From NCBI RefSeq assembly GCF_026967805.1, contig NZ_JAPVBG010000001.1, positions 1,069,143-1,133,142 of the forward strand: DNA of 64,000 nucleotides. The letters run 5' to 3'. Both the position numbers and the translations under genes were made by a program. This stretch comes from Blastococcus sp. VKM Ac-2987. GTDB lineage: Bacteria; Actinomycetota; Actinomycetes; Mycobacteriales; Geodermatophilaceae. The first letter of the stretch is position 1. The number at the start of each line of letters is the position of its first letter. The notes under the pieces are model-generated. The model was given only the letters and a program-made list of their open reading frames with translations, had not been told where the DNA came from and made no database searches. Positions 51,335 through 64,000 of the stretch are shown piece after piece.

Positions 51335-51997
51335 TCAGCGGGGACCGGCAGCCCCTCCGGGCCCGGGGAGCAGCCCGCGCTCCACGGCCACCAGCACCGC
51401 CCGGGTGCGGTCGTCGACCCCGAGCTTGGCGAAGACCCGCAGCAGGTGCGTCTTGACCGTCGCCTCCCCGATGAACAGCTGCCGGCCGATCTCCGCGTTG
51501 GTCAGCCCCTGCGCCACCCCGGCCAGCACCTCCAGCTCCCGCGCGGTCGGCGCCTCGACGGCCGGCACCCGCATCCGGGACACCAGCCGGGCGGCCACCG
51601 GCGGCGCCAGGACCGTCTCGCCGCGGGCCGCGGCGCGCACCGCGTCGGCCAGCCGCGGCAGGGGCGTGTCCTTGAGCAGGTAGCCGGTGGCCCCCGCCTC
51701 GACCGCCCGCACGATGTCGGCGTCGGTGTCGTAGGTGGTGAGCACCAGCACCCGCACCGCGGGATGCTCCGCCGCGATCCGGACCGTGGCCGCGACGCCG
51801 TCCATCCGCGGCATGCGCAGGTCCATGAGGACGACGTCCGGCTCCTGCTCGGCGACCAGCGCGAGCGCCTCCGTGCCGTCGCCCGCCTCGCCGACCACGG
51901 ACAGGTCCGGCTGCGCGTCCAGCCACCCGACCAGGCCGCCGCGGACCACCGGGTGGTCGTCGACCACCGCCACCCGGATGACGCCGTCGCCGGTCAC
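51335..51997 (-). CDS. NarL/LuxR family response regulator (second module)
   Basis: A 220-residue regulator: acidic pocket VVDDHPVVRGG, phospho-acceptor Asp in VVLMDLRMPRMDG near residue 58, conserved Lys in GYLLKDTP, and LuxR helix-turn-helix TARELEVLAGVAQGLTNAEI..ATVKTHLLRV. The GTG at 51997 overlaps the kinase stop. It ends a four-gene ABC exporter/two-component operon. Confidence 0.92.
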   Translation of the reverse strand: MTGDGVIRVAVVDDHPVVRGGLVGWLDAQPDLSVVGEAGDGTEALALVAEQEPDVVLMDLRMPRMDGVAATVRIAAEHPAVRVLVLTTYDTDADIVRAVEAGATGYLLKDTPLPRLADAVRAAARGETVLAPPVAARLVSRMRVPAVEAPTARELEVLAGVAQGLTNAEIGRQLFIGEATVKTHLLRVFAKLGVDDRTRAVLVAVERGLLPGPGGAAGPR

Positions 51998-53241
51998 GAC
52001 GCGGGCACCCGCACCGTCACCCGCGTGCCCGCACCGGGAGCCGAGGCGACGTCGACCTCCCCGCCCACCGACGACACCCGGTCGCGCAGCCCCTCGATGC
52101 CGGATCCCCGCGCGCGGGACGGGTCGAAGCCGACGCCGTCGTCCTCCACGTGCACCGACACCTGCCGCACCCCCTCGCCGCCGACCACGGACACCCGGAT
52201 CACCACCGCCCGCGCCGCCGCGTGCCGCCGCACGTTGGTCAGCGCCTCCTGTGCCCCGCGCAGCAGCACGACCTCCTCGTCCCGGCGCAGCTCCAGCCCG
52301 CCGTCCAGCGCGGCCGTGTCCACGCGCACCGGCAGGCCGGTCTCCCGCCCGAACCGGTCGGCCAGGCGCGCCAGCGCCTCGACCAGGGTCGAGCCGTCCA
52401 GGGCCACCGGCCGGAAGGCGGCCACCATGGCGCGTGCCTCGGCGAGGTTCTCCCGCGCCACCTCCTCGATCAGCGTCAGCCGCTCGCGGGCGGCCACCGG
52501 GTCGGTGGCGAGCTGCGCGGCCGCGGTCTGCGCCAGGACGACGATGCTCGTGTAGCCCTGCGCGAGCGTGTCGTGCACCTCCTGCGCCAGCCGCTCCCGC
52601 TCGGTCAGCACACCGCGCTCGCGCTCGGCCCCCGCCAGCTGCGCCCGGGTGCGCTCGAGCTGCTCGATGAGCTCGGCGCGGTGGGCACTCTGGTGCAGCA
52701 CCCGGCTGACCCACAACCCCAGCGCCAGGCTGAACAGCAGGCTGACGCAGGTCTGCAGCAGCACGTCGCGGGCGAGCTCGCCGGAGACCGCGCGCACCAG
52801 CGGGCCGACCGCGGTGGCGACCGCCAGCAGCACCGTCCACGCCACCCCGGTCATCCGGCCGTGGACGACGAACCACACCTGCGGGTAGGCGAGGAACAGC
52901 AGGAAGAACAGCCCCGGCGCCAGGAACCCGAGCGCGCAGAACCCGGCGACGAGGACCGTGAGGTAGCCGACCGCGCGCACCGGTGCGCTGCCGGTCAGCG
53001 CCGGCGCACCGGCCAGCAGGTACGCCAGCGCGAACGCCGCCAGCACCGCGAGGACGGCGACCAGTCGGCTCCCGTCGTGGTCGGCGACCGCCGTCGCCAC
53101 GGCCAGCGCCCACAGCGCCGCCGAGATGACGTGCATCCCGACGACGGTCGCCTGCCACCCGCGCTCGGACAGCGGTTCGGCCCCGTCGTCCTCGTCCGGC
53201 GGGGGGAGGAAGGCGGCGCCGAGCCGGCTGCGCAGGCTCAT
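51994..53241 (-). CDS. Sensor histidine kinase, HisKA_3 type (second module)
   Basis: A 415-residue kinase with six or so N-terminal membrane helices (residues 35-195), then the phospho-acceptor His in AQEVHDTLAQG near residue 225 and a HATPase domain with GAQEALTNVRRHA and DDGVGFDPSRARGSGIEGL. Its ATG overlaps the permease stop and its own stop overlaps the regulator start. It is paralogous in layout to the 16.3-kb kinase. Confidence 0.92.
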   Translation of the reverse strand: MSLRSRLGAAFLPPPDEDDGAEPLSERGWQATVVGMHVISAALWALAVATAVADHDGSRLVAVLAVLAAFALAYLLAGAPALTGSAPVRAVGYLTVLVAGFCALGFLAPGLFFLLFLAYPQVWFVVHGRMTGVAWTVLLAVATAVGPLVRAVSGELARDVLLQTCVSLLFSLALGLWVSRVLHQSAHRAELIEQLERTRAQLAGAERERGVLTERERLAQEVHDTLAQGYTSIVVLAQTAAAQLATDPVAARERLTLIEEVARENLAEARAMVAAFRPVALDGSTLVEALARLADRFGRETGLPVRVDTAALDGGLELRRDEEVVLLRGAQEALTNVRRHAAARAVVIRVSVVGGEGVRQVSVHVEDDGVGFDPSRARGSGIEGLRDRVSSVGGEVDVASAPGAGTRVTVRVPAS

Positions 53242-54080
53242 CCGGCGTTCCGCCGCCAGCGGAAGCTCCGGGCGCAGACCACGACGCCGATGATCACCCA
53301 AGCGGCCAGCACCGCGGCAGTGGTCCCGTGCTCCCAGCTGCCTGCGGGCTCCGCGGCCTTCGCGGCGTCGGGCAGGAAGACCGAGCGCATGCCCTGGGTC
53401 ATCCACTTGAGCGGGAACACCGCGGCGAGCTGCTGCATCCAGCCGGGTAGCTCCGAGAACACGAAGAAGACGCCGGAGAAGAACTGCAGGACGATCGCGA
53501 CCGCCGGGATGCCCGTGCCCGCCGCCCGCGCGCTGCCCACGAACGACGACACCGCGATGCCGAGGACCGTGCCGGCGAGGACGCCCAGCACCGCCACCCA
53601 GGCGAAGGTCAGCCAGCGGCCGGCGTCGTCGGGCATCGGCACGTCGTAGACCGTCGCCGCCACGACCAGCAGCACGGTCAGCTGGACGGCGGTGGTGAGC
53701 ACCACCTGACCGGCCTTGCCGATCCCGTACGCCAGCGGCGGGGTGCCGAGCGTCTGCAGCCGCACCAGGTCGCCCCGGTCGCGCTCCTCGGTGATCGCGA
53801 GGCCGACGGCCTGGAAGCTGGTGAGCATGATCCCGGTCGCGGCGATCCCGGCGAGGAAGTACTGCCGGAAGTCCACGCCCGGCGCCACCTCGCGGTCGGC
53901 GAAGATCGACCCGAAGATCACCAGCATCACGACCGGGTAGGCGAACGAGAACACCAGCTGGCCGGGGTCGCGGACGAACAGCCGCAGCTCCAGGGCCACC
54001 CGGGCCCACCCGATCGAGAGGGCGCCCGGCGGGGCCGGGCGGCGGGTGGCCGGCGGCGGGGACGGCAGCAGGTCGGTCAT
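53238..54080 (-). CDS. ABC-2 type exporter permease (second module)
   Basis: A 280-residue permease with six membrane helices. ABC-2 features include VRDPGQLVFSFAYPVVMLVIFG near residues 35-56 and ERDRGDLVRLQTLGTPPLAY near residue 98. It pairs with the ATPase immediately upstream (ATGA overlap) and is followed by its regulatory pair. Confidence 0.9.
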   Translation of the reverse strand: MTDLLPSPPPATRRPAPPGALSIGWARVALELRLFVRDPGQLVFSFAYPVVMLVIFGSIFADREVAPGVDFRQYFLAGIAATGIMLTSFQAVGLAITEERDRGDLVRLQTLGTPPLAYGIGKAGQVVLTTAVQLTVLLVVAATVYDVPMPDDAGRWLTFAWVAVLGVLAGTVLGIAVSSFVGSARAAGTGIPAVAIVLQFFSGVFFVFSELPGWMQQLAAVFPLKWMTQGMRSVFLPDAAKAAEPAGSWEHGTTAAVLAAWVIIGVVVCARSFRWRRNAG

Positions 54081-54976
54081 CGGGACGCTCCCTCGGAGAC
54101 GAGCCGGAGGTAGACGTCCTCCAGGCCGGGTCGGGTCACGCTGAGGTCGGGGATCTCCCCGGTCGGTGCCGCGGCCAGGAGGTCGCGCAGGACGGCGGAG
54201 GGCTCGCGGGTGACGACCTCGCGGGCGGCGCCGTCCTCGGTCCAGCGCACGGTGGCCTCCTGCCGCAGCCCGGCACCGAGCGCCCCGGGCGCGGCGACCT
54301 CCACCAGCCGGCCGCCCGCGATCACCCCGACGCGGTCGGCCAGGTGCGCGGCCTCGTCGAGGTAGTGGGTGGTCAGCAGGACGGTGGTGCCGCGGTCCCG
54401 CAGCCCCTCGATCAGCGTCCAGAACTGCCGTCGGGCGGCCGGGTCGAGCCCGGTCGTGGGCTCGTCGAGGAAGAGCAGCTCCGGCCGCCCTTGCACGCCC
54501 AGCGCGACCTCGAGCCGCCGCCGCTGCCCGCCGGAGAGCCGGTCGACGCGCGTGCGCGCCGTCCCCTCCAGGCCGACGGCGTCGAGCAGCTCCGCGCTGT
54601 CCTGCGGGGTCGCGTGGTAGCGCGCGTAGTGGTCGACGGTCTCCCGGACGGTCAGCGCATCGCCGGCGCCGGTGCTCTGCCCCACCACACCGACGCGGTC
54701 CCGCCAGCGCCGGTCGGCACCGGCCGGGTCCTCCCCCAGCACCTCGAGCGATCCGCCGTCCCGCCGCCGGAGCCCGGCCAGGATCTCGACCGTCGTGGTC
54801 TTGCCCGCCCCGTTCGGGCCCAGCAGCGCGAACACCTCGCCCCGCCGCACGTCGAGGTCGACGCCGTCGACGACGGCCCGCCCCCCGTACCGCTTGACCA
54901 GACCGCGCACCTGCACGGCCGGTCGCTCGCCGGAGGCCGCAGCCGGCAGGGCGGGCGCCCCGTGGGTCGTCGTCAT
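54077..54976 (-). CDS. ABC-2 type exporter ATP-binding protein (second module)
   Basis: A 299-residue DrrA/CcmA-like ATPase: Walker A GPNGAGKTT near residue 53, signature LSGGQRRRLEVAL, Walker B LLFLDEPTTGLDP and switch LTTHYLDEAAHLADR. The ATG follows TGGAGG. First gene of the minus-strand exporter/two-component operon, divergent from the inositol-phosphate synthase operon. Confidence 0.92.
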   Translation of the reverse strand: MTTTHGAPALPAAASGERPAVQVRGLVKRYGGRAVVDGVDLDVRRGEVFALLGPNGAGKTTTVEILAGLRRRDGGSLEVLGEDPAGADRRWRDRVGVVGQSTGAGDALTVRETVDHYARYHATPQDSAELLDAVGLEGTARTRVDRLSGGQRRRLEVALGVQGRPELLFLDEPTTGLDPAARRQFWTLIEGLRDRGTTVLLTTHYLDEAAHLADRVGVIAGGRLVEVAAPGALGAGLRQEATVRWTEDGAAREVVTREPSAVLRDLLAAAPTGEIPDLSVTRPGLEDVYLRLVSEGASR

Positions 54977-55113
54977 GCCTCCACCCTGGACCCTGGACGG
55001 CGTCGGGGGGACGACCGAAGCGCTGATCCGGCGTCCACCGGTCGGTGGACGCCATGGTCGTACCGGAGCCGCGCGCTCACCCAGCGAGCACCGGAGACCT
55101 GTGCCAGGCTCGA

Positions 55114-55153: not shown

Positions 55154-56374
55154 TTGTCCGGTGCTTCTCGTCGAGTCGGTATCGCGGTGGTCGGTCTGGG
55201 GGGTGCGGTCGCGACGACCGCCGTCGCGGGGCTGGAATTGCTCCGGCTCGGCGCCGTCGACCCCGCCGGTCTCCCCCTGGCGGGGATGGAGGTCGACGGG
55301 AAGCCGGTCGAGGCCGCGACCGGCCTGGTCGGCTACGCCGACCTGGTGGTCGGGGGCTGGGACCTCGACGGCGCCGACCTGGCGAAGGCGGCGGAGCAGC
55401 ACGGCGTCCTCGACCCCCGCCAGCTCGAGCAGGCCGCCCCGGCGCTGTCGGCGCTGACCCCGTGGCCGGCGGCCGGGGACGCCGACTTCTGCCGCAACGT
55501 GACCGGCGGCAACGTGGTGCTCGCCGGCACCCGCCGGGCGCAGTCCGACATCGTGCGCGCGGACCTGCGCCGCTTCCGGGAGGAGCAGCGCCTCGACGGG
55601 CTGGTGCTGGTCAACCTCGCCTCCACCGAGCGGTGGCCCGACCCGGCCGCCCCGGCCCTGCAGTCGGCCGCCGCCTTCGAGGAGGGCCTCGACGCCGACG
55701 ACCGGGCGATCACCCCGGCCATGATCTACGCCCACGCCGCCATCAGCGAGGGCGTCGGCTACGTCAACTTCACCCCGTCGCTGGGCGCCGACGTCCAGGC
55801 GCTGCTCGAGCTGGCCACGACGCGGGGCGTGCCGGTCGCCGGCAAGGACGGCAAGACCGGCCAGACCATGATGAAGACGGTGCTCGCGCCGGCCTTCCGC
55901 AGCCGCGCGCTGACCGTGGAGGGGTGGTACTCCACCAACATCCTGGGCAACCGCGACGGCCTGGCGCTGGAGGACCCCGACTCGCTGTCGAGCAAGCTGC
56001 AGACCAAGGGCAGCGTGCTCGACTCGATCCTCGGCTACCCGGTCGAGGACCACGTCGTGCGGATCGACTACTACCGGCCGCGCGGCGACCAGAAGGAGGC
56101 CTGGGACGCCATCGACCTGGTCGGCTTCCTCGGCCAGCGGATGCAGATCAAGGTCGACTTCCAGTGCCGCGACTCGATCCTCGCGGCCCCGCTGGCCATC
56201 GAGCTGGCCCGGCTCACCGACCTGGCCCAGCAGCGGGGGCAGGGTGGGGTGCAGGAGCACCTGGGCTGGTTCTTCAAGGCCCCGATGACCGCCGACGGCG
56301 AGGTTCCCGAGCACGCCCTGCACCGCCAGGAGCGGGCGCTGCTCGACTGGCTCGCCACGCCCGCCCCCCGGTGA
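55154..56374 (+). CDS. ino1: myo-Inositol-phosphate synthase family protein
   Basis: A 406-residue NAD-dependent enzyme that cyclises glucose 6-phosphate to inositol 3-phosphate. The NAD motif is VVGLGGAVATTAV near residue 12, VLVNLASTE is near residue 153, and the signature region is AGKDGKTGQTMMKTVLAPAF near residue 233. LEGWYSTN-type sequence (TVEGWYSTNILGNRDG) follows near residue 255. The start is TTG 55154 behind GGAGG; no ATG or GTG fits. It heads a nine-gene operon with all later starts touching or overlapping, so inositol is probably the scaffold of the product. Confidence 0.9.
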   Translation: MSGASRRVGIAVVGLGGAVATTAVAGLELLRLGAVDPAGLPLAGMEVDGKPVEAATGLVGYADLVVGGWDLDGADLAKAAEQHGVLDPRQLEQAAPALSALTPWPAAGDADFCRNVTGGNVVLAGTRRAQSDIVRADLRRFREEQRLDGLVLVNLASTERWPDPAAPALQSAAAFEEGLDADDRAITPAMIYAHAAISEGVGYVNFTPSLGADVQALLELATTRGVPVAGKDGKTGQTMMKTVLAPAFRSRALTVEGWYSTNILGNRDGLALEDPDSLSSKLQTKGSVLDSILGYPVEDHVVRIDYYRPRGDQKEAWDAIDLVGFLGQRMQIKVDFQCRDSILAAPLAIELARLTDLAQQRGQGGVQEHLGWFFKAPMTADGEVPEHALHRQERALLDWLATPAPR

Positions 56375-57270
56375 GCACCGGGCAGGCCCCGCTCGCGGAG
56401 CTGCGCCCGCTGCTGGCCGAGATCGGGGACGCCAAGCGGGTCCGGGTCGCGGGGGCGCCCGGCTCGCTGGCCGAGCAGGCGTTCGCCCGCGCCTGGGGCC
56501 GGCTGGTCGCCGGGGAGGACCCCGCCGCGGTGGCCCTCTCGGAGACCGCCGCGGCCGTGGCCCGCGCCCGGCTGGCGGGCATCGACGGCGGCGTGCTGCG
56601 CACCGCCGGACTCGCCGACGACGAGGCGCTGGCGGTCCTGCGGCGGTCGTTCGACGAGGTCGCCGGGCCCCTGGACCCCGGTGCGGCCGCGGACCTGCGC
56701 GCCGCCCTGGTCGTGGACCTCCCGCAGCCCCCGCCTCCCCCACTGGCCGGCCGGCTCGCCGCCCAGCCCCGCGCCGGGGCCACCGCCCCCGGCCGGGCGC
56801 GCGTGGTGGTGGAGCCGCCGGAGAGCCACGGCGACCACTGCCTCACCGTCGCCGTGTACGGGGTGCTCGTCGCGCCGCTGTTCGGCGCCGACCCGGTCCC
56901 GCCGTTCCTCGTCGGGCTGGCCCACCACCTGCACAACGTCGCGCTGCCCGACGCCGGGTTCGCCGGCGAGGTGCTGCTCGGCGGTGCGCTGCCGAGGGTC
57001 GTGGCGACCCTGGAGGAGCGCGAGCTGGCCGCGCTGCCCGAGGGTCTCGCCGGGCGGCTGCGCGGGGTGCTGGCCCTGCGCGCCGACGCGGGGCCGGCGG
57101 AGGCGCGGGCCTTCCACGCCGCCGACGTCCTCGACCGCGTGCTGCAGGTGCACCACCACGCCCGGGCCGCCGCCTTCACCGCCGAGCAGGCCCTCGACCA
57201 CCTCGACCTGGTGCACGCCGGCCCGGTCCAGGGCTTCCACCTCGAGGTGCTGTCGGCGGCCGGGCTGTGA
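56371..57270 (+). CDS. HD-like domain protein of unknown function
   Basis: A 299-residue protein. The first 110 residues are helical without a recognised family. The second half has histidine-rich segments ESHGDHCLTVAVYG near residue 150, VGLAHHLHNVALPDAGF near residue 185 and AFHAADVLDRVLQVHHHARA near residue 240, resembling an HD-superfamily metal site with an HH in place of the usual HD. It could be a phosphohydrolase acting on inositol phosphate or a metal-dependent oxygenase of the HD fold; this is speculative. The start overlaps the ino1 stop. Confidence 0.6.
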   Translation: MSTGQAPLAELRPLLAEIGDAKRVRVAGAPGSLAEQAFARAWGRLVAGEDPAAVALSETAAAVARARLAGIDGGVLRTAGLADDEALAVLRRSFDEVAGPLDPGAAADLRAALVVDLPQPPPPPLAGRLAAQPRAGATAPGRARVVVEPPESHGDHCLTVAVYGVLVAPLFGADPVPPFLVGLAHHLHNVALPDAGFAGEVLLGGALPRVVATLEERELAALPEGLAGRLRGVLALRADAGPAEARAFHAADVLDRVLQVHHHARAAAFTAEQALDHLDLVHAGPVQGFHLEVLSAAGL

Positions 57271-57282
57271 GCCGGTGAGCTC

Positions 57283-58320
57283 GTGACCCGCGCGCTGCCC
57301 GCCCCCGTCGTCGACGGCATCCCGTTCGCCCGGGCCGGCCGCGAGGAGCTGCGCGCCGAGGTCGCCGGGCTGGTCGCCGCCGGGGAGGTCGACCGGGCCC
57401 GGGTGCTGCTGCTCGCCGACACCGACGACTGGTGGACCGAGCCGCCGCCACCTGCCGAGCAGCTCGCCCGGGTGCCGGCCGCCGGCACGCTGCGCGAGGC
57501 GATGGCGCTGCTGGGGATGGGCCGGGTCGCCGACTACTTCGCCCACCGCTGGTCGGACCCCACCCACCTGGCCGGGCTCGCCCTGCTCCAGCAGCACTGG
57601 CCCGGCTCCCGCCCGGTCGTCGACGTCGCCTGCGGCATCGGCACCCAGCTGCGCGAGCTGGCCCGCCGCGGCTGCACCGGGCTGGTGGGCGTGGACGTGG
57701 TGTGGGCCAAGCTCTGGCTGGCCCGCCGGTTCGTCTGCCCGGGCGCCCGGTACGTGTGCGTCGACGCCACCGCCGTCCCGGGGACCGCAGTCCCCGGTCT
57801 CGACGTGCCGCGGCCGGCCTACGTGCTGTGCTCCGACGCCTTCTACTTCCTGCGCGACAAGCCCGCCGCCGCGGCCGCGCTGCACGCGCTGGCCGGGCCC
57901 GGCGGCACGGTCGTGGTGGGCCACGCGCACGTCACCGACCCGGCCGGGGAGCCGCTGACCCCCGAGGGCTACGCCGCCGTGCTGGGCACCGACCTGCTCT
58001 ACGACGACGACGAGCTCACCCGCGCGCTGCTCGCAGGCCGCCCGCCCCGCCCCGCCGCGCCCGCCGACCTGCACGGCAGCGAGGCGGTCGCGCTCGTCGC
58101 CGGCGACCCCCTCCGGCCCGCCCCGGCCGACCTCGGGACGCCGCTGCCCCCGCTGCGCCCCAACCCGCTCTACGTCGACGGGGTGCGCACCTGGCCCAGC
58201 GCCCGCTACGGAGCGGAGTACGGCCCCCGTTCCGGGTACCTCCCCGAGCGCTGGCCGGACCCGCTGCCCCCCGACGCGGCCCGCCGCCGGCTGCTGGTCG
58301 ACCTACCGGAGGCGTGGTGA
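57283..58320 (+). CDS. SAM-dependent methyltransferase-like protein
   Basis: A 345-residue protein with a central class I methyltransferase core: motif I VVDVACGIGTQLRELARRG near residue 107, GVDVVWAKLWLARRF, and YVLCSDAFYFL near residue 183. N- and C-terminal extensions of about 100 residues each are unusual. A GTG at 57283 starts 12 bp after the previous gene. It probably methylates an intermediate of the operon's product. Confidence 0.78.
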   Translation: MTRALPAPVVDGIPFARAGREELRAEVAGLVAAGEVDRARVLLLADTDDWWTEPPPPAEQLARVPAAGTLREAMALLGMGRVADYFAHRWSDPTHLAGLALLQQHWPGSRPVVDVACGIGTQLRELARRGCTGLVGVDVVWAKLWLARRFVCPGARYVCVDATAVPGTAVPGLDVPRPAYVLCSDAFYFLRDKPAAAAALHALAGPGGTVVVGHAHVTDPAGEPLTPEGYAAVLGTDLLYDDDELTRALLAGRPPRPAAPADLHGSEAVALVAGDPLRPAPADLGTPLPPLRPNPLYVDGVRTWPSARYGAEYGPRSGYLPERWPDPLPPDAARRRLLVDLPEAW

Positions 58321-59345
58321 GCGCAGGGAGCCCCGGCACCGTCGGGTGGGGCGTCGCCGGCTGCGGGTGGGTGGCCCGCGACCACGCGCTGCCCGCGCTC
58401 CGGGCCACGCCGGGCGCCCGGGTGGTGGCGCTGCACGACCGCGACGGGCAGGCCCTGGACCGGGTGGACGGCGACACCCCGCGGGGCACCGACCTCGCCG
58501 CCTTCCTGGCCTCCCCCGGCCTGGACGCCGTCTACGTCGCGGTGCCCAACGCCGCCCACCGGGCCGTCGTGGAGGCGGCGGCGGCCGCGGGGTGCGCCGT
58601 CCTGGTGGAGAAGCCGCTGGCCGCCGACGTCGCCGACGCCGAGGCCCTGGTGCGCACCTGCCGCGACGCCGGGGAGCTGCTGGGCACCGCCTACGACCAG
58701 CGCTGGCACCCCGCCCACGTGCGGCTGCGCGAGCTGCTGCCCGAGCTGGGCACGGTGACCGCCGTCCGGGTCGTCTACTGCTGCTGGCTGCCCGCCGACT
58801 GGACGCCGGACGGCCGGCCGCACGACAACTGGCGGGTCGACCCGGCCCGCGCCGGGGGCGGCGCGGCGATCGACCTGGCCCCGCACGGGCTGGACCTGGC
58901 CGGCGTGCTGCTCGGCGAGGACGTCGAGACCCTCACCGCGCTGCTGCAGCGGCGGGTGCACGGCTACCCGGTGGACGACGGCGCACTGCTGGCCGGCCGC
59001 ACCGCGAGCGGCGTCCTGGTCGACCTGCACGTCGCCTACAACACCCCCGACGCGCTGCCCCGGCGCCGGCTGGAGGTGGTCGGCACCCGCGGCATGGCGG
59101 TGGCCGTCGACACGATGGGCCAGACCGCGGGCGGCTCGCTGACGCTGTACCGCCCGGAGCCGGTCGACGTCCCCTTCCCCGCCACGTCCCCGTTCGCCGC
59201 CCAGTTCGCCGCCTTCACCGCCGCGGTCGCGGGGGCGGCGGACTGGCCCTACGCCCCCGATCGCGACCTGCGCCTGCACCGGCTCCTGCTCACCGCCCTG
59301 GACGACGCCGCACCGGAACCCGCTGCCCTGGGAGGCACCCGATGA
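58317..59345 (+). CDS. Gfo/Idh/MocA family oxidoreductase
   Basis: A 342-residue NAD(P)-dependent dehydrogenase. N-terminal Rossmann segment GWGVAGCGWVARDHALPAL near residue 10, the EKP motif in VLVEKPLAADVADAEALV near residue 98, and a C-terminal beta-sheet domain with GGGAAIDLAPHGLDLAGVLL near residue 182 containing the catalytic-type D-x3-H. In this setting oxidation of an inositol or sugar hydroxyl to a ketone (an inosose) is likely. GTGA overlap with the methyltransferase gene. Confidence 0.87.
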   Translation: MSAGSPGTVGWGVAGCGWVARDHALPALRATPGARVVALHDRDGQALDRVDGDTPRGTDLAAFLASPGLDAVYVAVPNAAHRAVVEAAAAAGCAVLVEKPLAADVADAEALVRTCRDAGELLGTAYDQRWHPAHVRLRELLPELGTVTAVRVVYCCWLPADWTPDGRPHDNWRVDPARAGGGAAIDLAPHGLDLAGVLLGEDVETLTALLQRRVHGYPVDDGALLAGRTASGVLVDLHVAYNTPDALPRRRLEVVGTRGMAVAVDTMGQTAGGSLTLYRPEPVDVPFPATSPFAAQFAAFTAAVAGAADWPYAPDRDLRLHRLLLTALDDAAPEPAALGGTR

Positions 59346-60214
59346 CCAACCCCTACCGTGGGCTGCTGCCCGACCTGCCCGCCTACGCCTGCACCAACTG
59401 CGGCCACTGGCAGCGCTGGCCGGCCCCCGGCCCCCTGACCTGCCCGGTCTGCGCCGACGTGCGCAACGCGCTGCCCGAGCACGGCTTCGAGTTCGTCACC
59501 GACAAGCAGGCCGACGAGCTGGTCACCGGCTTCTGGCGGCCCACCGCCGTCGAGGGCGTCACCGAGTTCGGCACCGAGCCGCGGTTCGGGCTGGACAGCC
59601 GCGGGTGGGTGATCGAGACCGACATCGGCCTGGTCGGCTTCGAGTGCGCCCCCTGGTACACCGCACCGATGCTGGCCGAGCTGCGCCGGATGGCCGCCGG
59701 GAAGGGTGGCTTCGACGTCCTGGCCTCCAGCCACGTGCACGGCTACGGCGCGCTGTGGCAGCTGCAGGCCGAGCTCGAACCCCGGGTGGTGTGCGTGGGG
59801 GTGCGCGACCTGGAGTGGACCAAGGCCTTCCGGGTCACCTGGCCGGCCGACGACGTCCTCCAGCTCGCCCCGGACCTCACGCTGCACCGCACGGGCGGGC
59901 ACTTCCCCGGCCACTCGGTGCTGCACGACCGCCGCCGGGGCGTGCTGTTCTGCGGCGACTCGCTGAAGGTCGACCTGGCCGACGACGGGACGCCGGTCGC
60001 GCTGAGCGCGCACAAGGCGTTCCACGCGCAGATCCCGCTCTCCCACGGCGAGCTGCGCGAGTACCTGACCGTGGTCGGCGCGCTGGAGTTCGACACGGTG
60101 GCGACGCCGTTCGAGCTGGTGCGCGGGGTCACCACCGACACCGTCGTGCGCCTGGTGCGCCGATTGCTCGCCGGCCCGCCGGACGCCGCCCCGGTCGCGC
60201 TGGAGGAGCTGTGA
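59342..60214 (+). CDS. Zinc-ribbon metallo-beta-lactamase-fold protein with degenerate metal site
   Basis: A 290-residue protein. A zinc ribbon at residues 17-37 (CTNCGHWQRW..CPVCADV) precedes a metallo-beta-lactamase fold. The usual HxHxDH is HVHGYG, so the Asp and third His are missing. Later elements GGHFPGHSVLH and LFCGDSLKV are kept. A mononuclear site or a non-hydrolytic role is therefore possible. ATGA overlap with the dehydrogenase gene. Confidence 0.75.
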   Translation: MTNPYRGLLPDLPAYACTNCGHWQRWPAPGPLTCPVCADVRNALPEHGFEFVTDKQADELVTGFWRPTAVEGVTEFGTEPRFGLDSRGWVIETDIGLVGFECAPWYTAPMLAELRRMAAGKGGFDVLASSHVHGYGALWQLQAELEPRVVCVGVRDLEWTKAFRVTWPADDVLQLAPDLTLHRTGGHFPGHSVLHDRRRGVLFCGDSLKVDLADDGTPVALSAHKAFHAQIPLSHGELREYLTVVGALEFDTVATPFELVRGVTTDTVVRLVRRLLAGPPDAAPVALEEL

Positions 60215-61659
60215 CCCCCGCGCAGCGGTACCTGGCCTCGTTCCCGCCGGTCGAGGAGTTCGCCGTCGAAGGGCTCGACGTCCTCGACGTGCCGCTGCAC
60301 AGCGCCTTCCTCGTCGACTCCCCGGCGCACGCCGGCGGCTCGGGCCTCGGCTACGGCGCCACCCGGGAGGAGGCGCGCACCGGGGCGCTGGGCGAGATGG
60401 CCGAGATGGCGCTGTCGGCCCGCGCGCTGGCGACCCGGCCCCGGGTGCAGGCCTCGTACGCCGAGCTGGTCCGGCGTGAGGGCCGCGACCGGGTGGCCGA
60501 CCCGCGCACGCTGGCGCTGGAGGCCGGCAGCCCCTACGACGAGGACCGGCCGCTGCAGTGGCTGCCGATGCGCCGCCTCTCCGACGGCGGGACCGTGCTC
60601 GTGCCCGCCGAGCTGGTCGCCTCCGGCCCCGAGGACCTGCCCGGCGACCCGCCGCCCGGGGGCTGGCTGACCACGGTGGTCACCAACGGACAGGGCGCGG
60701 CGTTCGACGCCGACCGGGCCACCGCCCACGCGCTGCTGGAGGTGCTGCAGCGCGACGGGAACGCCACCGCCTTCCGGGCCATGGACCGCGGCGTGGTGCT
60801 CGACCTCGCCGGGTTGCGGGACCCCGACGCGCTCGCCCTGCTCGACCGGCTCGCCGCGGCGGGCATCGACGTGCTCGTGAAGCTGGCGAGCACCGCCTTC
60901 GGGGTGGTCGACGTCTACGCCGTGGGCTGCACGCGGGACGGCTCGGAGCCGGTGCCGGTGATGGCCACCGCCTGCGGGGAGGCCGCGCACCCCGACCGGG
61001 ACACCGCCGTCCGCAAGGCGCTGTTCGAGTTCGCCGCCGCCCGCGCCCGGAAGGCCTTCATGCACGGCCCGCTGGACCGGGTCGCCGCGGCCACGCCGCC
61101 CGGCTACCTCGACGCGTGGCTGTCCGGCCACCCGCCCGAGCGGCTGGTCGAGGAGGACCGGGCGCTGGCCGCGATGCTCGACTGGACCCGGCAGGGCACG
61201 CCCGCGCTGGTCGACCTCCTGCGCGGCACGGTGCTCTCGCGGCGGGAGACCGTCCCGCTGACCGGCCTGCCGACCTGGGCCGGTGACGACCTGCTGGCCA
61301 CCCTGACCGGGCGGCTGGCGGCCGACGGCCTCGACGTCCTGGTCGACCTGCACCCCTCCGACGGGGAGGCGGTCGCGGCCAAGGTGCTGGCCCCCGGGCT
61401 CGAGGTGGAGACCATGTCCTACGGGCGGATCGGTGAGCGCGGGGTCCGCCGGCTGCTGGAGCGCGGCGACCCGCTGGTCGCCGTCGGCCCCGACCCGGGC
61501 GGCTGGGCGCGGGTGCACCTGACCCCGGACGCGAGGGAGCGCCTCGGCGGGCCGGCCTGGTTCGACCGCGCCGGCGCCGACGCCCGGGTGGGCCCCCTCT
61601 ACGCCCTCTACCGGGAGCCCGGCCGGCACGTGGCCGCGAGCGTGGGAGCGGCCCGGTGA
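60211..61659 (+). CDS. YcaO-like protein (divergent)
   Basis: A 482-residue protein with the YcaO layout: ATREEARTGALGEMAEMAL near residue 50 (first acidic pair), ALLEVLQRDGNATAFRAMD near residue 174 (the ExxER helix with Gln in place of the second Glu), and GEAAHPDRDTAVRKALFEFA near residue 250. YcaO enzymes use ATP to activate amide oxygens for azoline, thioamide or amidine formation. There is no C-terminal proline-rich PxPxP motif, no fused partner and no precursor peptide gene nearby. A non-peptide substrate is possible. GTGA overlap with the previous gene. Confidence 0.78.
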   Translation: MTPAQRYLASFPPVEEFAVEGLDVLDVPLHSAFLVDSPAHAGGSGLGYGATREEARTGALGEMAEMALSARALATRPRVQASYAELVRREGRDRVADPRTLALEAGSPYDEDRPLQWLPMRRLSDGGTVLVPAELVASGPEDLPGDPPPGGWLTTVVTNGQGAAFDADRATAHALLEVLQRDGNATAFRAMDRGVVLDLAGLRDPDALALLDRLAAAGIDVLVKLASTAFGVVDVYAVGCTRDGSEPVPVMATACGEAAHPDRDTAVRKALFEFAAARARKAFMHGPLDRVAAATPPGYLDAWLSGHPPERLVEEDRALAAMLDWTRQGTPALVDLLRGTVLSRRETVPLTGLPTWAGDDLLATLTGRLAADGLDVLVDLHPSDGEAVAAKVLAPGLEVETMSYGRIGERGVRRLLERGDPLVAVGPDPGGWARVHLTPDARERLGGPAWFDRAGADARVGPLYALYREPGRHVAASVGAAR

Positions 61660-62510
61660 ACGCGCTGCGCTACGCCTACAACACCAACGGGCTGACCTCG
61701 CACCGGCTCGACGACGCGCTGGCCCTCCTGGCCGACACCGGGTACGCGGGCGTGGCCCTGACGCTCGACGTGGTGCACCTCGACCCGTTCGCCGAGGACG
61801 CCTTCCGGCAGGCCGAGCGGGTGCGGTCGCGCTGCGACGAGCTGGGGCTGGGCGTCGTGGTGGAGACCGGCGCGCGGTTCCTGCTGGACCCGCGGGTCAA
61901 GCACGAGCCGACGCTGGTCTCGCCGTCGGCCGAGGGCCGCGCCCGCCGGCTGGCCTACCTGCGGCTGGCCTGCGACCTCGCCGAGGTGCTCGACGCCGAG
62001 GCGGTGAGCTTCTGGGCGGGGGTGCCGCGCCCGGAGGTGGACCGCGAGGAGGCGTGGGGCCGGCTGGTGGACGGCGTCCGCGCGCTGGTCGACAGCCACG
62101 GCGGTCGCGGCTACGCCCTCGCCGTCGAGCCCGAGCCGGGGATGCTGGTCGAGGACTGCGACGGCTGGGCCCGGCTGGCCGCGGCGGCCCCGGGGATCAC
62201 GCTGGCCCTCGACACGGGGCACTGCGTCGTCGCCGGCGGGTACGCCCCCGAGGAGGCGGTGACCGCGTTCGCGCACCAGCTGGGCACGGTCGCGGTCGAG
62301 GGCATGCGCCGCGGCGTCCACGACCACCTGCCGCTTGACGAGGGGGACGTCGACCTGCCCGCCGTGCTGCGCGCGCTGCGGACCGCCGGCTTCGACCGGT
62401 TGGTCACCCTGGAGCTCTCCCGCGACGGGCACCGCGCGCACCAGATGGTGCCGCGGGCGATGGCGACCCTGCGGGCCGCGGAGACGGCCGGCGGCGAGGA
62501 GGCGACGTGA
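61656..62510 (+). CDS. Sugar phosphate isomerase/epimerase-like TIM-barrel protein
   Basis: A 284-residue protein of the xylose-isomerase-like TIM-barrel group (IolE/IolI/EboE relatives). Metal-ligand-type residues are in GYALAVEPEPGMLVED near residue 155, ITLALDTGHCVVAGG near residue 180, RRGVHDHLPLDEGDVDL near residue 213 and LVTLELSRDGH near residue 250. Isomerisation or dehydration of a keto-inositol produced by the dehydrogenase upstream is a fitting role. GTG start overlapping the YcaO stop. Confidence 0.82.
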   Translation: MNALRYAYNTNGLTSHRLDDALALLADTGYAGVALTLDVVHLDPFAEDAFRQAERVRSRCDELGLGVVVETGARFLLDPRVKHEPTLVSPSAEGRARRLAYLRLACDLAEVLDAEAVSFWAGVPRPEVDREEAWGRLVDGVRALVDSHGGRGYALAVEPEPGMLVEDCDGWARLAAAAPGITLALDTGHCVVAGGYAPEEAVTAFAHQLGTVAVEGMRRGVHDHLPLDEGDVDLPAVLRALRTAGFDRLVTLELSRDGHRAHQMVPRAMATLRAAETAGGEEAT

Positions 62511-63715
62511 GGACCTGCTTCGTGAGCCGGCGCTACTGGCCGGCGGTGAGCGGTATGAGCGTGTACGCGGAGAACCTGCTGCGCGAGCTCGTGGCCCTCG
62601 GCCAGGAGGTGACGCTGGTCAGCCAGTACCGCGACGACGAGGCCGGGACCCGGGTGTACGGCGGCGGCCCGCCCCCGCCGGAGCGGGTGCCCGCCGGGGT
62701 CGAGGTGGTGGCTCTGCCCAGCCGCGGGGAGACGGTCGTCCCGGCGGACTGGGAGGGCGACATCGCCGAGATCGTGCGCACCGTCGTCGGCCTGCACGCC
62801 GAGCGACCCTTCGACGTGCTGCACGCCCAGTACGGCTACCCCCCGGGCCTGGCGGTGCTGGCCGCCGCCCACGAGACCGCCCTGCCCGCCGTGGTGAGCA
62901 TCCAGGGCGGTGACGGGCACTGGGTGGGCACCTGCTGCAGCACGCACGCACAGGCGATGCGGACCGTGGTGGACGCCTCCAGCGCGGTGCTGATCGGCAG
63001 CGCCAGCTTCCGCGACGAGGTGGTGGGCAACCTCGGCAGCGACCCGGCGCGCTTCACGATCGTCCCCGGGGCGACCGACACCCGGCGGTTCACGCCGGCC
63101 GAGCGGCCCCCGGGCGCGCTGGGCGAGCCGCCGGTGCTGCTGTTCCACGGCCGGGTCGACCGGCGCAAAGGCGTGCTCGACCTGCTCGAGGCGCTACCCG
63201 AGGGGGTGCGGCTGGTGGTCTCCGGCATCGGTCCCGACCTCGACGAGGCCCGGGCCCGCGCCGACGGGCGGACGACGTTCCTCGGCTACGTCCCGCCCGA
63301 CGAGGCGCCGGAGGTCTACCGGTCGGCCGACGTCTTCGTCAGCCCGACCTACAGCGAGGGGTTCAGCAACACCCTGCTGGAGGCGATGGCCAGCGGCCTG
63401 CCGGTGGTGAGCACCGACAGCGTCGGCGTCGTCGACTGCATCCGGCACGGGGAGAACGGACTGCTGCACACCCCCGGCGACATCGCCGGCCTGCGCACGC
63501 AGCTGGACCGGCTGCTGGCCGACGGCGACCTGCGGGCCCGGCTGGCCGCCACCGCGCTGGAGGAGGTGCGGCGGCGGTACTCGTGGCCCGTGCTGGCCCG
63601 CGCGGTCGACGCGGTGCACCGGCAGGTGGCCGGGACGACGCCGGACGCCGGCTGGACGATGCCGGACGGCGTCGACCTCTCCTGCCGGTTCCGGTCGGCG
63701 GCGCACCTGCTGTGA
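62507..63715 (+). CDS. Glycosyltransferase family 4 protein
   Basis: A 402-residue GT-B glycosyltransferase. N-terminal acceptor domain from MRTCFVSRRYWPAVSGMSVY; C-terminal donor domain from LLFHGRVDRRKGVLDLLEAL near residue 209; the nucleotide-sugar motif E-x7-E is SEGFSNTLLEAMASGLPVVS near residue 285. It resembles MshA-like enzymes in overall form, so transfer of GlcNAc or another sugar to an inositol acceptor is plausible. GTGA overlap with the isomerase gene. Confidence 0.88.
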   Translation: MRTCFVSRRYWPAVSGMSVYAENLLRELVALGQEVTLVSQYRDDEAGTRVYGGGPPPPERVPAGVEVVALPSRGETVVPADWEGDIAEIVRTVVGLHAERPFDVLHAQYGYPPGLAVLAAAHETALPAVVSIQGGDGHWVGTCCSTHAQAMRTVVDASSAVLIGSASFRDEVVGNLGSDPARFTIVPGATDTRRFTPAERPPGALGEPPVLLFHGRVDRRKGVLDLLEALPEGVRLVVSGIGPDLDEARARADGRTTFLGYVPPDEAPEVYRSADVFVSPTYSEGFSNTLLEAMASGLPVVSTDSVGVVDCIRHGENGLLHTPGDIAGLRTQLDRLLADGDLRARLAATALEEVRRRYSWPVLARAVDAVHRQVAGTTPDAGWTMPDGVDLSCRFRSAAHLL

Positions 63716-64000
63716 GGGTGCTGGCGGTCAGCCCGCACCTGGACGATGCGGCGTTCTCCGTCGGCGGCACGCTCGCCGCCCTCGCCGACGCGGGCCACGC
63801 GGTCACGGTGGTCACCTGCCTGACCGCGAGCGTGCCGCACCCGACCGGCTTCGCGCTGGCCTGCCAGCTGGACAAGGGGCTGCCCGCCGACGCCGACTAC
63901 ATGGCGCTGCGCCGGGCCGAGGACGCCGCGGCGATGGCCACGCTGGGGGCCACCCCCGTGCACTGGGACCTGCCCGAGGCCCCGCACCGCGGCTACACCG
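63712..64000 (+). CDS. PIG-L family deacetylase (partial)
   Basis: The first 96 residues of a zinc-dependent deacetylase of the PIG-L/MshB family, cut by the window edge. The metal-binding SPHLDDAAFSVGGTLAALA sits at residues 7-25. Members remove the acetyl group from GlcNAc-type glycosides, as MshB does in mycothiol synthesis. The GTG at 63712 overlaps the glycosyltransferase stop, so the operon continues. Confidence 0.88.
   Translation, partial: MRVLAVSPHLDDAAFSVGGTLAALADAGHAVTVVTCLTASVPHPTGFALACQLDKGLPADADYMALRRAEDAAAMATLGATPVHWDLPEAPHRGYT

What the first reader, a model, noticed from the sequence alone, without database searches (positions are those of the whole stretch)
55154..64000. 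Uncharacterised nine-gene inositol-glycoside-like operon with a YcaO enzyme
ino1, HD-like, methyltransferase, Gfo/Idh/MocA dehydrogenase, metallo-beta-lactamase-fold, YcaO, TIM-barrel isomerase, GT4 and PIG-L genes lie head to tail, nearly all with overlapping start/stop codons. Known chemistry of the families gives a coherent route: make inositol phosphate, oxidise and isomerise it, glycosylate with a GlcNAc-type sugar, deacetylate. The first, glycosyltransfer and deacetylation steps echo mycothiol synthesis, but the oxidation, methylation and YcaO steps do not belong there. I know of no described pathway with this set. The product is inferred.
Basis: partly seen in the sequence, partly recalled or inferred. 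Interest (0 to 1): 0.87.

Follow-up and report, generated by a model that had tools for sequence, protein, structure and literature searches.

The report
Conserved nine-gene inositol-glycoside operon with YcaO
Nine adjacent genes, kept in the same order in many soil actinobacteria and in distantly related Acetobacteraceae, are predicted to build a sugar-bearing inositol compound with the help of a YcaO enzyme, a type usually known for modifying peptides; no product assigned to them was found in the papers searched.

Summary
The nine genes are real and co-oriented; seven of eight junctions overlap by 4 bases, and PIG-L runs past the window edge to 64443. With the metallo-beta-lactamase-fold (MBL) gene as probe, 71 loci were found; 52 carry all nine genes, and all 52 have the same order. 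They span Geodermatophilaceae, Streptomyces, Micromonospora, Pseudonocardia, Actinomycetospora and Acetobacteraceae. Two further loci swap YcaO and TIM. Five of five six-gene Actinomycetospora genomes tested keep TIM-GT4-PIG-L together elsewhere. A galE gene lies within 650 bases in 22 of 77 loci. The genome has a separate Ino1 and a mycothiol ligase MshC elsewhere, so this is not its mycothiol pathway. Most likely it makes an oxidised, methylated inositol carrying an N-deacetylated amino sugar, with YcaO activating an amide; every chemical step is inferred. Against a tidy story: the same YcaO subfamily also occurs in 16 examined genomes without the operon-type MBL gene, and the HD-fold protein has no His-Asp pair. 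Eight paper searches listed no such pathway. Substrate and product are untested.

The parts
55154..56374 (+). ino1: myo-inositol-1-phosphate synthase family
   Evidence: PF07994 210 bits, PF01658 120 bits; nearest solved chain 7nwr Inositol-3-phosphate synthase, 294.5 bits; TTG start behind GGAGG
56371..57270 (+). HD-fold protein, predicted phosphatase, with an HH pair where HD proteins have His-Asp
57283..58320 (+). SAM-dependent methyltransferase
   Evidence: PF13489 28.7 and PF13649 27.6 bits, both just above the cut-off of 27; no solved relative at E<=0.01
58317..59345 (+). Gfo/Idh/MocA NAD(P)-dependent dehydrogenase
   Evidence: PF01408, PF22725, PF02894; nearest solved chain 1,5-anhydro-D-fructose reductase 110.7 bits; K98, D185, H189 (numbered from base 58320) at >=97% of 68
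59342..60214 (+). Metallo-beta-lactamase-fold protein with an N-terminal four-cysteine knuckle and an altered metal motif (HVHGYG)
60211..61659 (+). YcaO-domain protein, a distinct subfamily (QRDGN motif, C-terminal YRE)
   Evidence: PF02624 180 bits; SagD model only 84 of 219 bits; motifs in 92 aligned sequences
61656..62510 (+). Xylose-isomerase-like TIM barrel (predicted dehydratase or isomerase)
   Evidence: PF01261 115 bits; IolE chain 9zmu E 2.3e-6; E158, D186, H189, E253 at >=97% of 65
62507..63715 (+). GT4-type glycosyltransferase
   Evidence: PF13692 113 bits; E284-x7-E292 at >=97% of 66
63712..64000 (+). PIG-L-type N-deacetylase, cut by the window end (genome continues to 64443)
   Evidence: PF02585 58.7 of 28.2 bits; H9, D11, D12, H140, D142, H143 at >=97% of 64

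Best explanation
These nine genes form one conserved operon that likely makes a small inositol-derived amino-sugar glycoside, separate from mycothiol. Inferred route: Ino1 turns glucose 6-phosphate into inositol phosphate; the HD-fold protein removes the phosphate; the Gfo/Idh/MocA enzyme oxidises a ring hydroxyl to a ketone; the TIM barrel isomerises or dehydrates the ketone; the methyltransferase adds a methyl group; GT4 adds an N-acetyl-hexosamine (donor possibly epimerised by the neighbouring GalE); PIG-L removes the N-acetyl group. YcaO would use ATP to activate an amide on this non-peptide substrate, and the MBL-fold protein, likely with one metal site, would assist or hydrolyse an intermediate. 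Shown: gene content, order, co-conservation, split-operon linkage, kept motifs. Not shown: any reaction, substrate or product.
For: 52 of 71 loci hold all nine genes, all 52 colinear, first to last match start within 9.6 kb. Five of five six-gene Actinomycetospora genomes tested hold TIM-GT4-PIG-L as a trio elsewhere, TIM 76-79% identical to that of a complete Actinomycetospora locus; an IclR-type gene (by Pfam) lies beside the six-gene half in L091 and beside the trio in L159. In one genome YcaO is missing between MBL and TIM but is kept about 7 kb upstream of ino1 on the contig that holds ino1. Goekera and three Kineococcus genomes without operon-type ino1 keep only a distant Ino1 match (26-30% identity), as expected if the step gives ordinary inositol phosphate. 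The galE-type gene is within 650 bases in 22 of 77 loci, in three placements, 11 of them with a 4-base overlap; the window's copy passes the GalE model (318 of 262.3 bits). Motifs are kept. A separate Ino1 and MshC lie elsewhere in the genome. An MFS transporter gene precedes the operon in 12 of 13 Acetobacteraceae loci (one typed by Pfam), in keeping with a small exported compound.
Against: No reaction was tested. The set has no aminotransferase or evident amide donor, so YcaO's substrate is unexplained. The same YcaO subfamily occurs in 16 examined loci without the operon, and 0 of those 16 genomes has the operon-type MBL gene, four having a distant relative at 108-126 bits, so YcaO is not exclusive. 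The HD-fold protein has HH, not His-Asp, and its fold match is of middling strength for a helical protein. The methyltransferase match is weak. Three Kineococcus and one Goekera genome lack operon-type ino1; one Kineococcus has no TIM match at E<=1e-20. 22 other genomes of the window's genus have no strong YcaO match.
Confidence: 0.5

Rival explanations
1. A second low-molecular-weight thiol pathway: inositol, GlcN-type sugar and an ATP-dependent coupling, with YcaO doing the ligase job of MshC.
For: Ino1, GT4 and PIG-L echo MshA/MshB steps; BshA and MshA models match GT4 weakly (72.9 and 71.1 bits), and BshB2, Mca and MshB models match PIG-L weakly (about 21 bits).
Against: The mycothiol models fall far below cut-off (Ino1 43.2 of 638, MshA 71.1 of 462.5; MshB 20.9 of 224.35); no MshC- or MshD-like gene among the nine; the genome has its own MshC (646 bits). 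YcaO is not known (recalled) to ligate a carboxylate to an amine.
Confidence: 0.1
2. YcaO and partners modify a peptide or protein (RiPP-like), with the inositol and sugar genes decorating it.
For: Most described YcaO proteins act on peptides (recalled; listing); several relatives are named ribosomal protein S12 methylthiotransferase accessory factor.
Against: No room for a precursor gene between the nine genes: junctions are 4-base overlaps or 12 bases. No TfuA or E1-like partner among the Pfam matches of the nine proteins. SagD model below cut-off. A distant precursor gene was not searched for.
Confidence: 0.12
3. A catabolic or salvage operon for an inositol or amino-sugar compound.
For: Gfo/Idh/MocA, IolE-like TIM barrel and deacetylases occur in sugar catabolism (recalled); operon-free YcaO sits near an ABC importer in 11 of 16 loci.
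Against: Ino1 and GT4 build rather than degrade; no importer, kinase or aldolase is among the nine genes.
Confidence: 0.1
4. The Ino1-family enzyme makes a different cyclitol (for example a five-membered ring), so the product is not inositol-based.
For: A five-membered-cyclitol-phosphate synthase is a distant relative (6k96, 45.6 bits).
Against: MIPS chains score far higher (7nwr 294.5 bits), and four genomes without operon-type ino1 keep another, distant Ino1 match.
Confidence: 0.08

Closest known systems
Mycothiol biosynthesis (Ino1, MshA-D)
   Same: Ino1, GT4 and PIG-L enzyme types; inositol and amino-sugar logic.
   Different: Mycothiol-specific models not reached; extra dehydrogenase, methyltransferase, MBL-fold, YcaO and TIM genes; a separate Ino1 and MshC elsewhere in the genome.
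Hygromycin A aminocyclitol pathway (Hyg17 and others)
   Different: There the dehydrogenase works with an aminotransferase; none is among the nine genes. The parts read mention no YcaO, MBL-fold or PIG-L gene.
ebo operon (eboA-F)
   Same: Conserved operon of unknown product with a xylose-isomerase-like TIM barrel, proposed to give a cyclitol compound (PMC5133447, passages read).
   Different: Uses a sugar-phosphate cyclase and a UbiA-type enzyme; the words 'inositol' and 'YcaO' have no occurrence in that main text.
Azoline- and thioamide-forming YcaO enzymes of RiPP pathways
   Same: YcaO domain (PF02624, 180 bits).
   Different: No precursor space between the genes, no TfuA or E1-like partner among the nine; QRDGN motif; SagD model below cut-off.

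Membership tests
Mycothiol pathway | Mycothiol-specific Ino1, MshA and MshB models reached | tested here: not met
   43.2 of 638 and 71.1 of 462.5 bits; 20.9 of 224.35
Mycothiol pathway | Cysteine ligase MshC in the locus | tested here: not met
   The one match over cut-off lies at C6:1074061, another contig
YcaO superfamily | YcaO domain over the curated cut-off | tested here: met
   180 bits vs 25.7
RiPP azoline-forming YcaO (SagD type) | SagD-family model reached | tested here: not met
   84 of 219.25 bits
RiPP YcaO system | Precursor peptide gene between the genes of the operon | tested here: not met
   No gap over 12 bases; genes within other genes or far away were not sought
Thioamide-forming YcaO/TfuA pair | TfuA gene in the operon | tested here: not met
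   No TfuA match among the nine proteins
Myo-inositol-1-phosphate synthase | Family domains over cut-off and near full-length similarity to a solved MIPS | tested here: met
Myo-inositol-1-phosphate synthase | Makes inositol phosphate from glucose 6-phosphate | not testable with these tools
   Needs an assay
YfbR/HDDC2 HD phosphohydrolases | Fold | tested here: inconclusive
YfbR/HDDC2 HD phosphohydrolases | His-Asp metal dyad | tested here: not met
   No His-Asp dipeptide in the protein; H185-H186 set against His-Asp of 2cqz at weak score; HH at >=97% of 62
Canonical binuclear metallo-beta-lactamase-fold hydrolases | HxHxDH motif (recalled) | tested here: not met
   HVHGYG or HVHGFG in 16 of 16 rows; H186 and D205 kept
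PIG-L deacetylases | Domain over cut-off and PHxDD/HxDH motifs (motif role recalled) | tested here: met
   58.7 vs 28.2 bits; motifs
GalE | GalE equivalog model reached by the neighbouring epimerase | tested here: met
   318 vs 262.3 bits for the window genome's copy; other loci typed only by clustering

The most novel reading that the evidence does not exclude
A widespread, horizontally shared pathway in which a YcaO enzyme works on a sugar or cyclitol instead of a peptide: it activates the N-acyl amide of an amino sugar so that a neighbouring hydroxyl or sulfur attacks it, giving a sugar oxazoline or thioamide in an inositol pseudodisaccharide. The recurring pairing of this YcaO subfamily with de-N-acetylase-type genes (PIG-L in the operon, a polysaccharide-deacetylase-like gene outside it) would reflect that shared substrate class.
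Probability: 0.3. Interest if true: 0.88.

Novelty: new variant of a known kind. Interest (0 to 1): 0.66.

Why it matters
If right, dozens of sequenced actinobacteria and Acetobacteraceae make an unrecognised inositol glycoside, and YcaO chemistry extends beyond peptides. The conserved order, the split operon and the galE link make the pathway directly testable by expressing one ten-gene set with isotope-fed mass spectrometry. It would also re-annotate a YcaO subfamily, several members of which are named in databases as ribosomal-protein accessory factors.

Tried and rejected
Mycothiol pathway copy: rejected on model scores and the separate MshC and Ino1. RiPP cluster: no precursor space or partner within the operon. 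The first scans of the HD protein used a wrong frame; the frame was found and scanned. MIOX-like mixed-valent oxygenase for the HD protein: considered; no such chain is in the fold rows shown, which excludes nothing. Persulfide-dioxygenase-like role for the MBL-fold protein: a recalled idea, not tested. Mycosporine-like (methoxy-cyclohexenone) product: an idea from the dehydrogenase, IolE-like and methyltransferase set, untested and not scored. YcaO as an operon-exclusive marker: rejected; in a midpoint-rooted FastTree of 92 YcaO sequences the operon-free copies fall in several places. The deacetylase-like neighbour of operon-free YcaO: of four representatives scanned, two pass Polysacc_deac_1 (L061, L051), one is below cut-off (L054, 19.4 of 23.1 bits) and one has no match (L033); one pair across the two clusters aligns at 29% identity, E 2e-14. 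No tree was used to date transfer between phyla.

The genome-contig scan used two peptide patterns of the MBL protein, so copies with altered motifs are missed. Partial loci: 19 of 71. Nine touch a contig edge (L092, L094, L098, L099, L109, L118, L121, L122, L149). The other ten: six Actinomycetospora loci without TIM-GT4-PIG-L (L091, L095, L097, L111, L117, L145; five of these genomes were searched for the trio, L097's was not), three Kineococcus loci without ino1 and TIM (L105, also without an MT match; L128; L143) and Goekera without ino1 (L093). Of the edge loci, L118 also lacks YcaO between MBL and TIM, and Kineococcus L099 also lacks TIM. Reverse test with YcaO as probe: of 15 more distant hits fetched with context, seven sit in the operon or a contig-cut part of it (L048, L049, L053, L055, L056, L058, L059), seven do not (L050-L052, L054, L057, L060, L061) and one is relocated (L047).

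Papers: no text holds YcaO with inositol-3-phosphate synthase and biosynthetic gene cluster; 14 papers hold YcaO and inositol, none on such a pathway by title. Searches were seen as listings only, and where more papers matched than were listed the rest were not seen. Of single papers I saw passages of PMC9290621, passages of PMC5133447, and abstract plus Results of PMC10949010. The library holds open-licence papers only, and no cluster database was available.
Full report
Observation. The window lies in G000:C1:1069143-1133142, a 4.6 Mb genome of 12 contigs. Its nearest YcaO relative in the family search, G058, is 92% identical; that contig's length (363621) equals that of a record titled Geodermatophilus sp. 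LHW52908, so I take the family to be Geodermatophilaceae. The nine genes run from 55154 to 64443, the last crossing the window end. Seven of eight junctions overlap by 4 bases and one gap is 12 bases. Upstream, genes that read by eye as an ABC transporter and a two-component system are divergent; downstream a galE gene is convergent and overlaps PIG-L by 13 bases.

Conservation. In the family, 32 of 112 genomes (the window's own included) hold a YcaO of 75% identity or more and nine hold one of 51-53%. In the window's own genus, G000 alone of 23 genomes has a strong match; the others have weak matches or none. In the order, 32 of 298 genomes match at E<=1e-30; in the class, 9 of 394 (samples that share genomes). 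With the MBL-fold protein as probe, 71 loci came from the genome collection. Of these, 52 hold all nine genes on one strand, and 52 of 52 are colinear. They include Streptomyces, Micromonospora, Pseudonocardia, Actinomycetospora, Geodermatophilus, Modestobacter and Blastococcus and, in Acetobacteraceae, Belnapia, Dankookia, Paracraurococcus and Roseococcus, hence two phyla (taxonomy recalled). Outside that set, two actinobacterial loci have YcaO and TIM swapped (L058, L059).

Departures that speak for linkage. Six Actinomycetospora loci end after YcaO. In the five of those genomes searched, TIM, GT4 and PIG-L lie together at another place. The gene after YcaO clusters together in seven such loci and is an IclR-type regulator in L091; the gene divergent from the trio in L159 is IclR-type too. 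In one Frankineae genome (G243, whose match position is the same as that of L118's genome), YcaO is gone from between MBL and TIM but lies about 7 kb upstream of ino1, on the contig with ino1; MBL is on another contig. Goekera and three Kineococcus genomes have no operon-type ino1 and only a distant Ino1 match of 26-30% identity; two of the three Kineococcus have a diverged TIM (38-39%) and one none at E<=1e-20.

Neighbours. The galE cluster lies within 650 bases in 22 of 77 loci clustered: 13 downstream on the same strand (11 with a 4-base overlap), seven downstream convergent, two upstream divergent. The window's copy passes the GalE model. In Acetobacteraceae an MFS gene precedes the operon in 12 of 13 loci and a GT2 gene is near in 12 of 13 (one representative of each typed).

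Not mycothiol. Mycothiol-specific models are not reached. The genome has a second Ino1 on contig C5 and an MshC of 646 bits on C6; it has eight PIG-L matches in all. MshA, MshB and MshD were not searched for elsewhere in the genome.

The YcaO puzzle. Sixteen loci carry the same YcaO subfamily without the operon. Eleven of 16 have a solute-binding protein with two permeases nearby, and 13 of 16 have a gene of two clusters that resemble polysaccharide deacetylases, not all by Pfam. None of these 16 genomes has the operon-type MBL gene; four have a distant relative at 108-126 bits. In a tree of 92 YcaO sequences the operon-free copies fall in several places. So the enzyme is portable, and its two settings share sugar handling and N-deacetylation; this is the basis of the novel case and is inference.

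Mechanism. I commit to a small-molecule pathway from glucose 6-phosphate via inositol to an oxidised, methylated inositol glycoside with a free amino sugar, YcaO activating an amide. Each chemical step rests on family knowledge. Confidence is 0.5 for this frame, lower for each detail.

Literature. The closest described inositol route, hygromycin A, has its dehydrogenase work with an aminotransferase.

Noticed in passing
window 51335-55055, - strand: Genes that read by eye as response regulator, histidine kinase, ABC permease and ABC ATPase run divergently from ino1.
   Followed up: no
L033-L041, L050-L052, L054, L060, L061: Operon-free YcaO copies lie near a sugar-type ABC importer and/or a deacetylase-like gene; a second, unexplained YcaO setting. 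Three of the nine g8 copies show one TGA inside the matched stretch.
   Followed up: partly
L159 6478-7545 and L160 12137-13228: A spore-photoproduct-lyase-type radical SAM gene follows PIG-L in the relocated Actinomycetospora trio (Pfam on L159 only).
   Followed up: no
L138 15224-15865 and relatives: A uracil-DNA-glycosylase-family gene follows PIG-L in five Acetobacteraceae loci (Pfam on L138 only).
   Followed up: no
L043 9139-10573: In this genome the YcaO match splits into two overlapping stretches in different frames near its 3' end.
   Followed up: no
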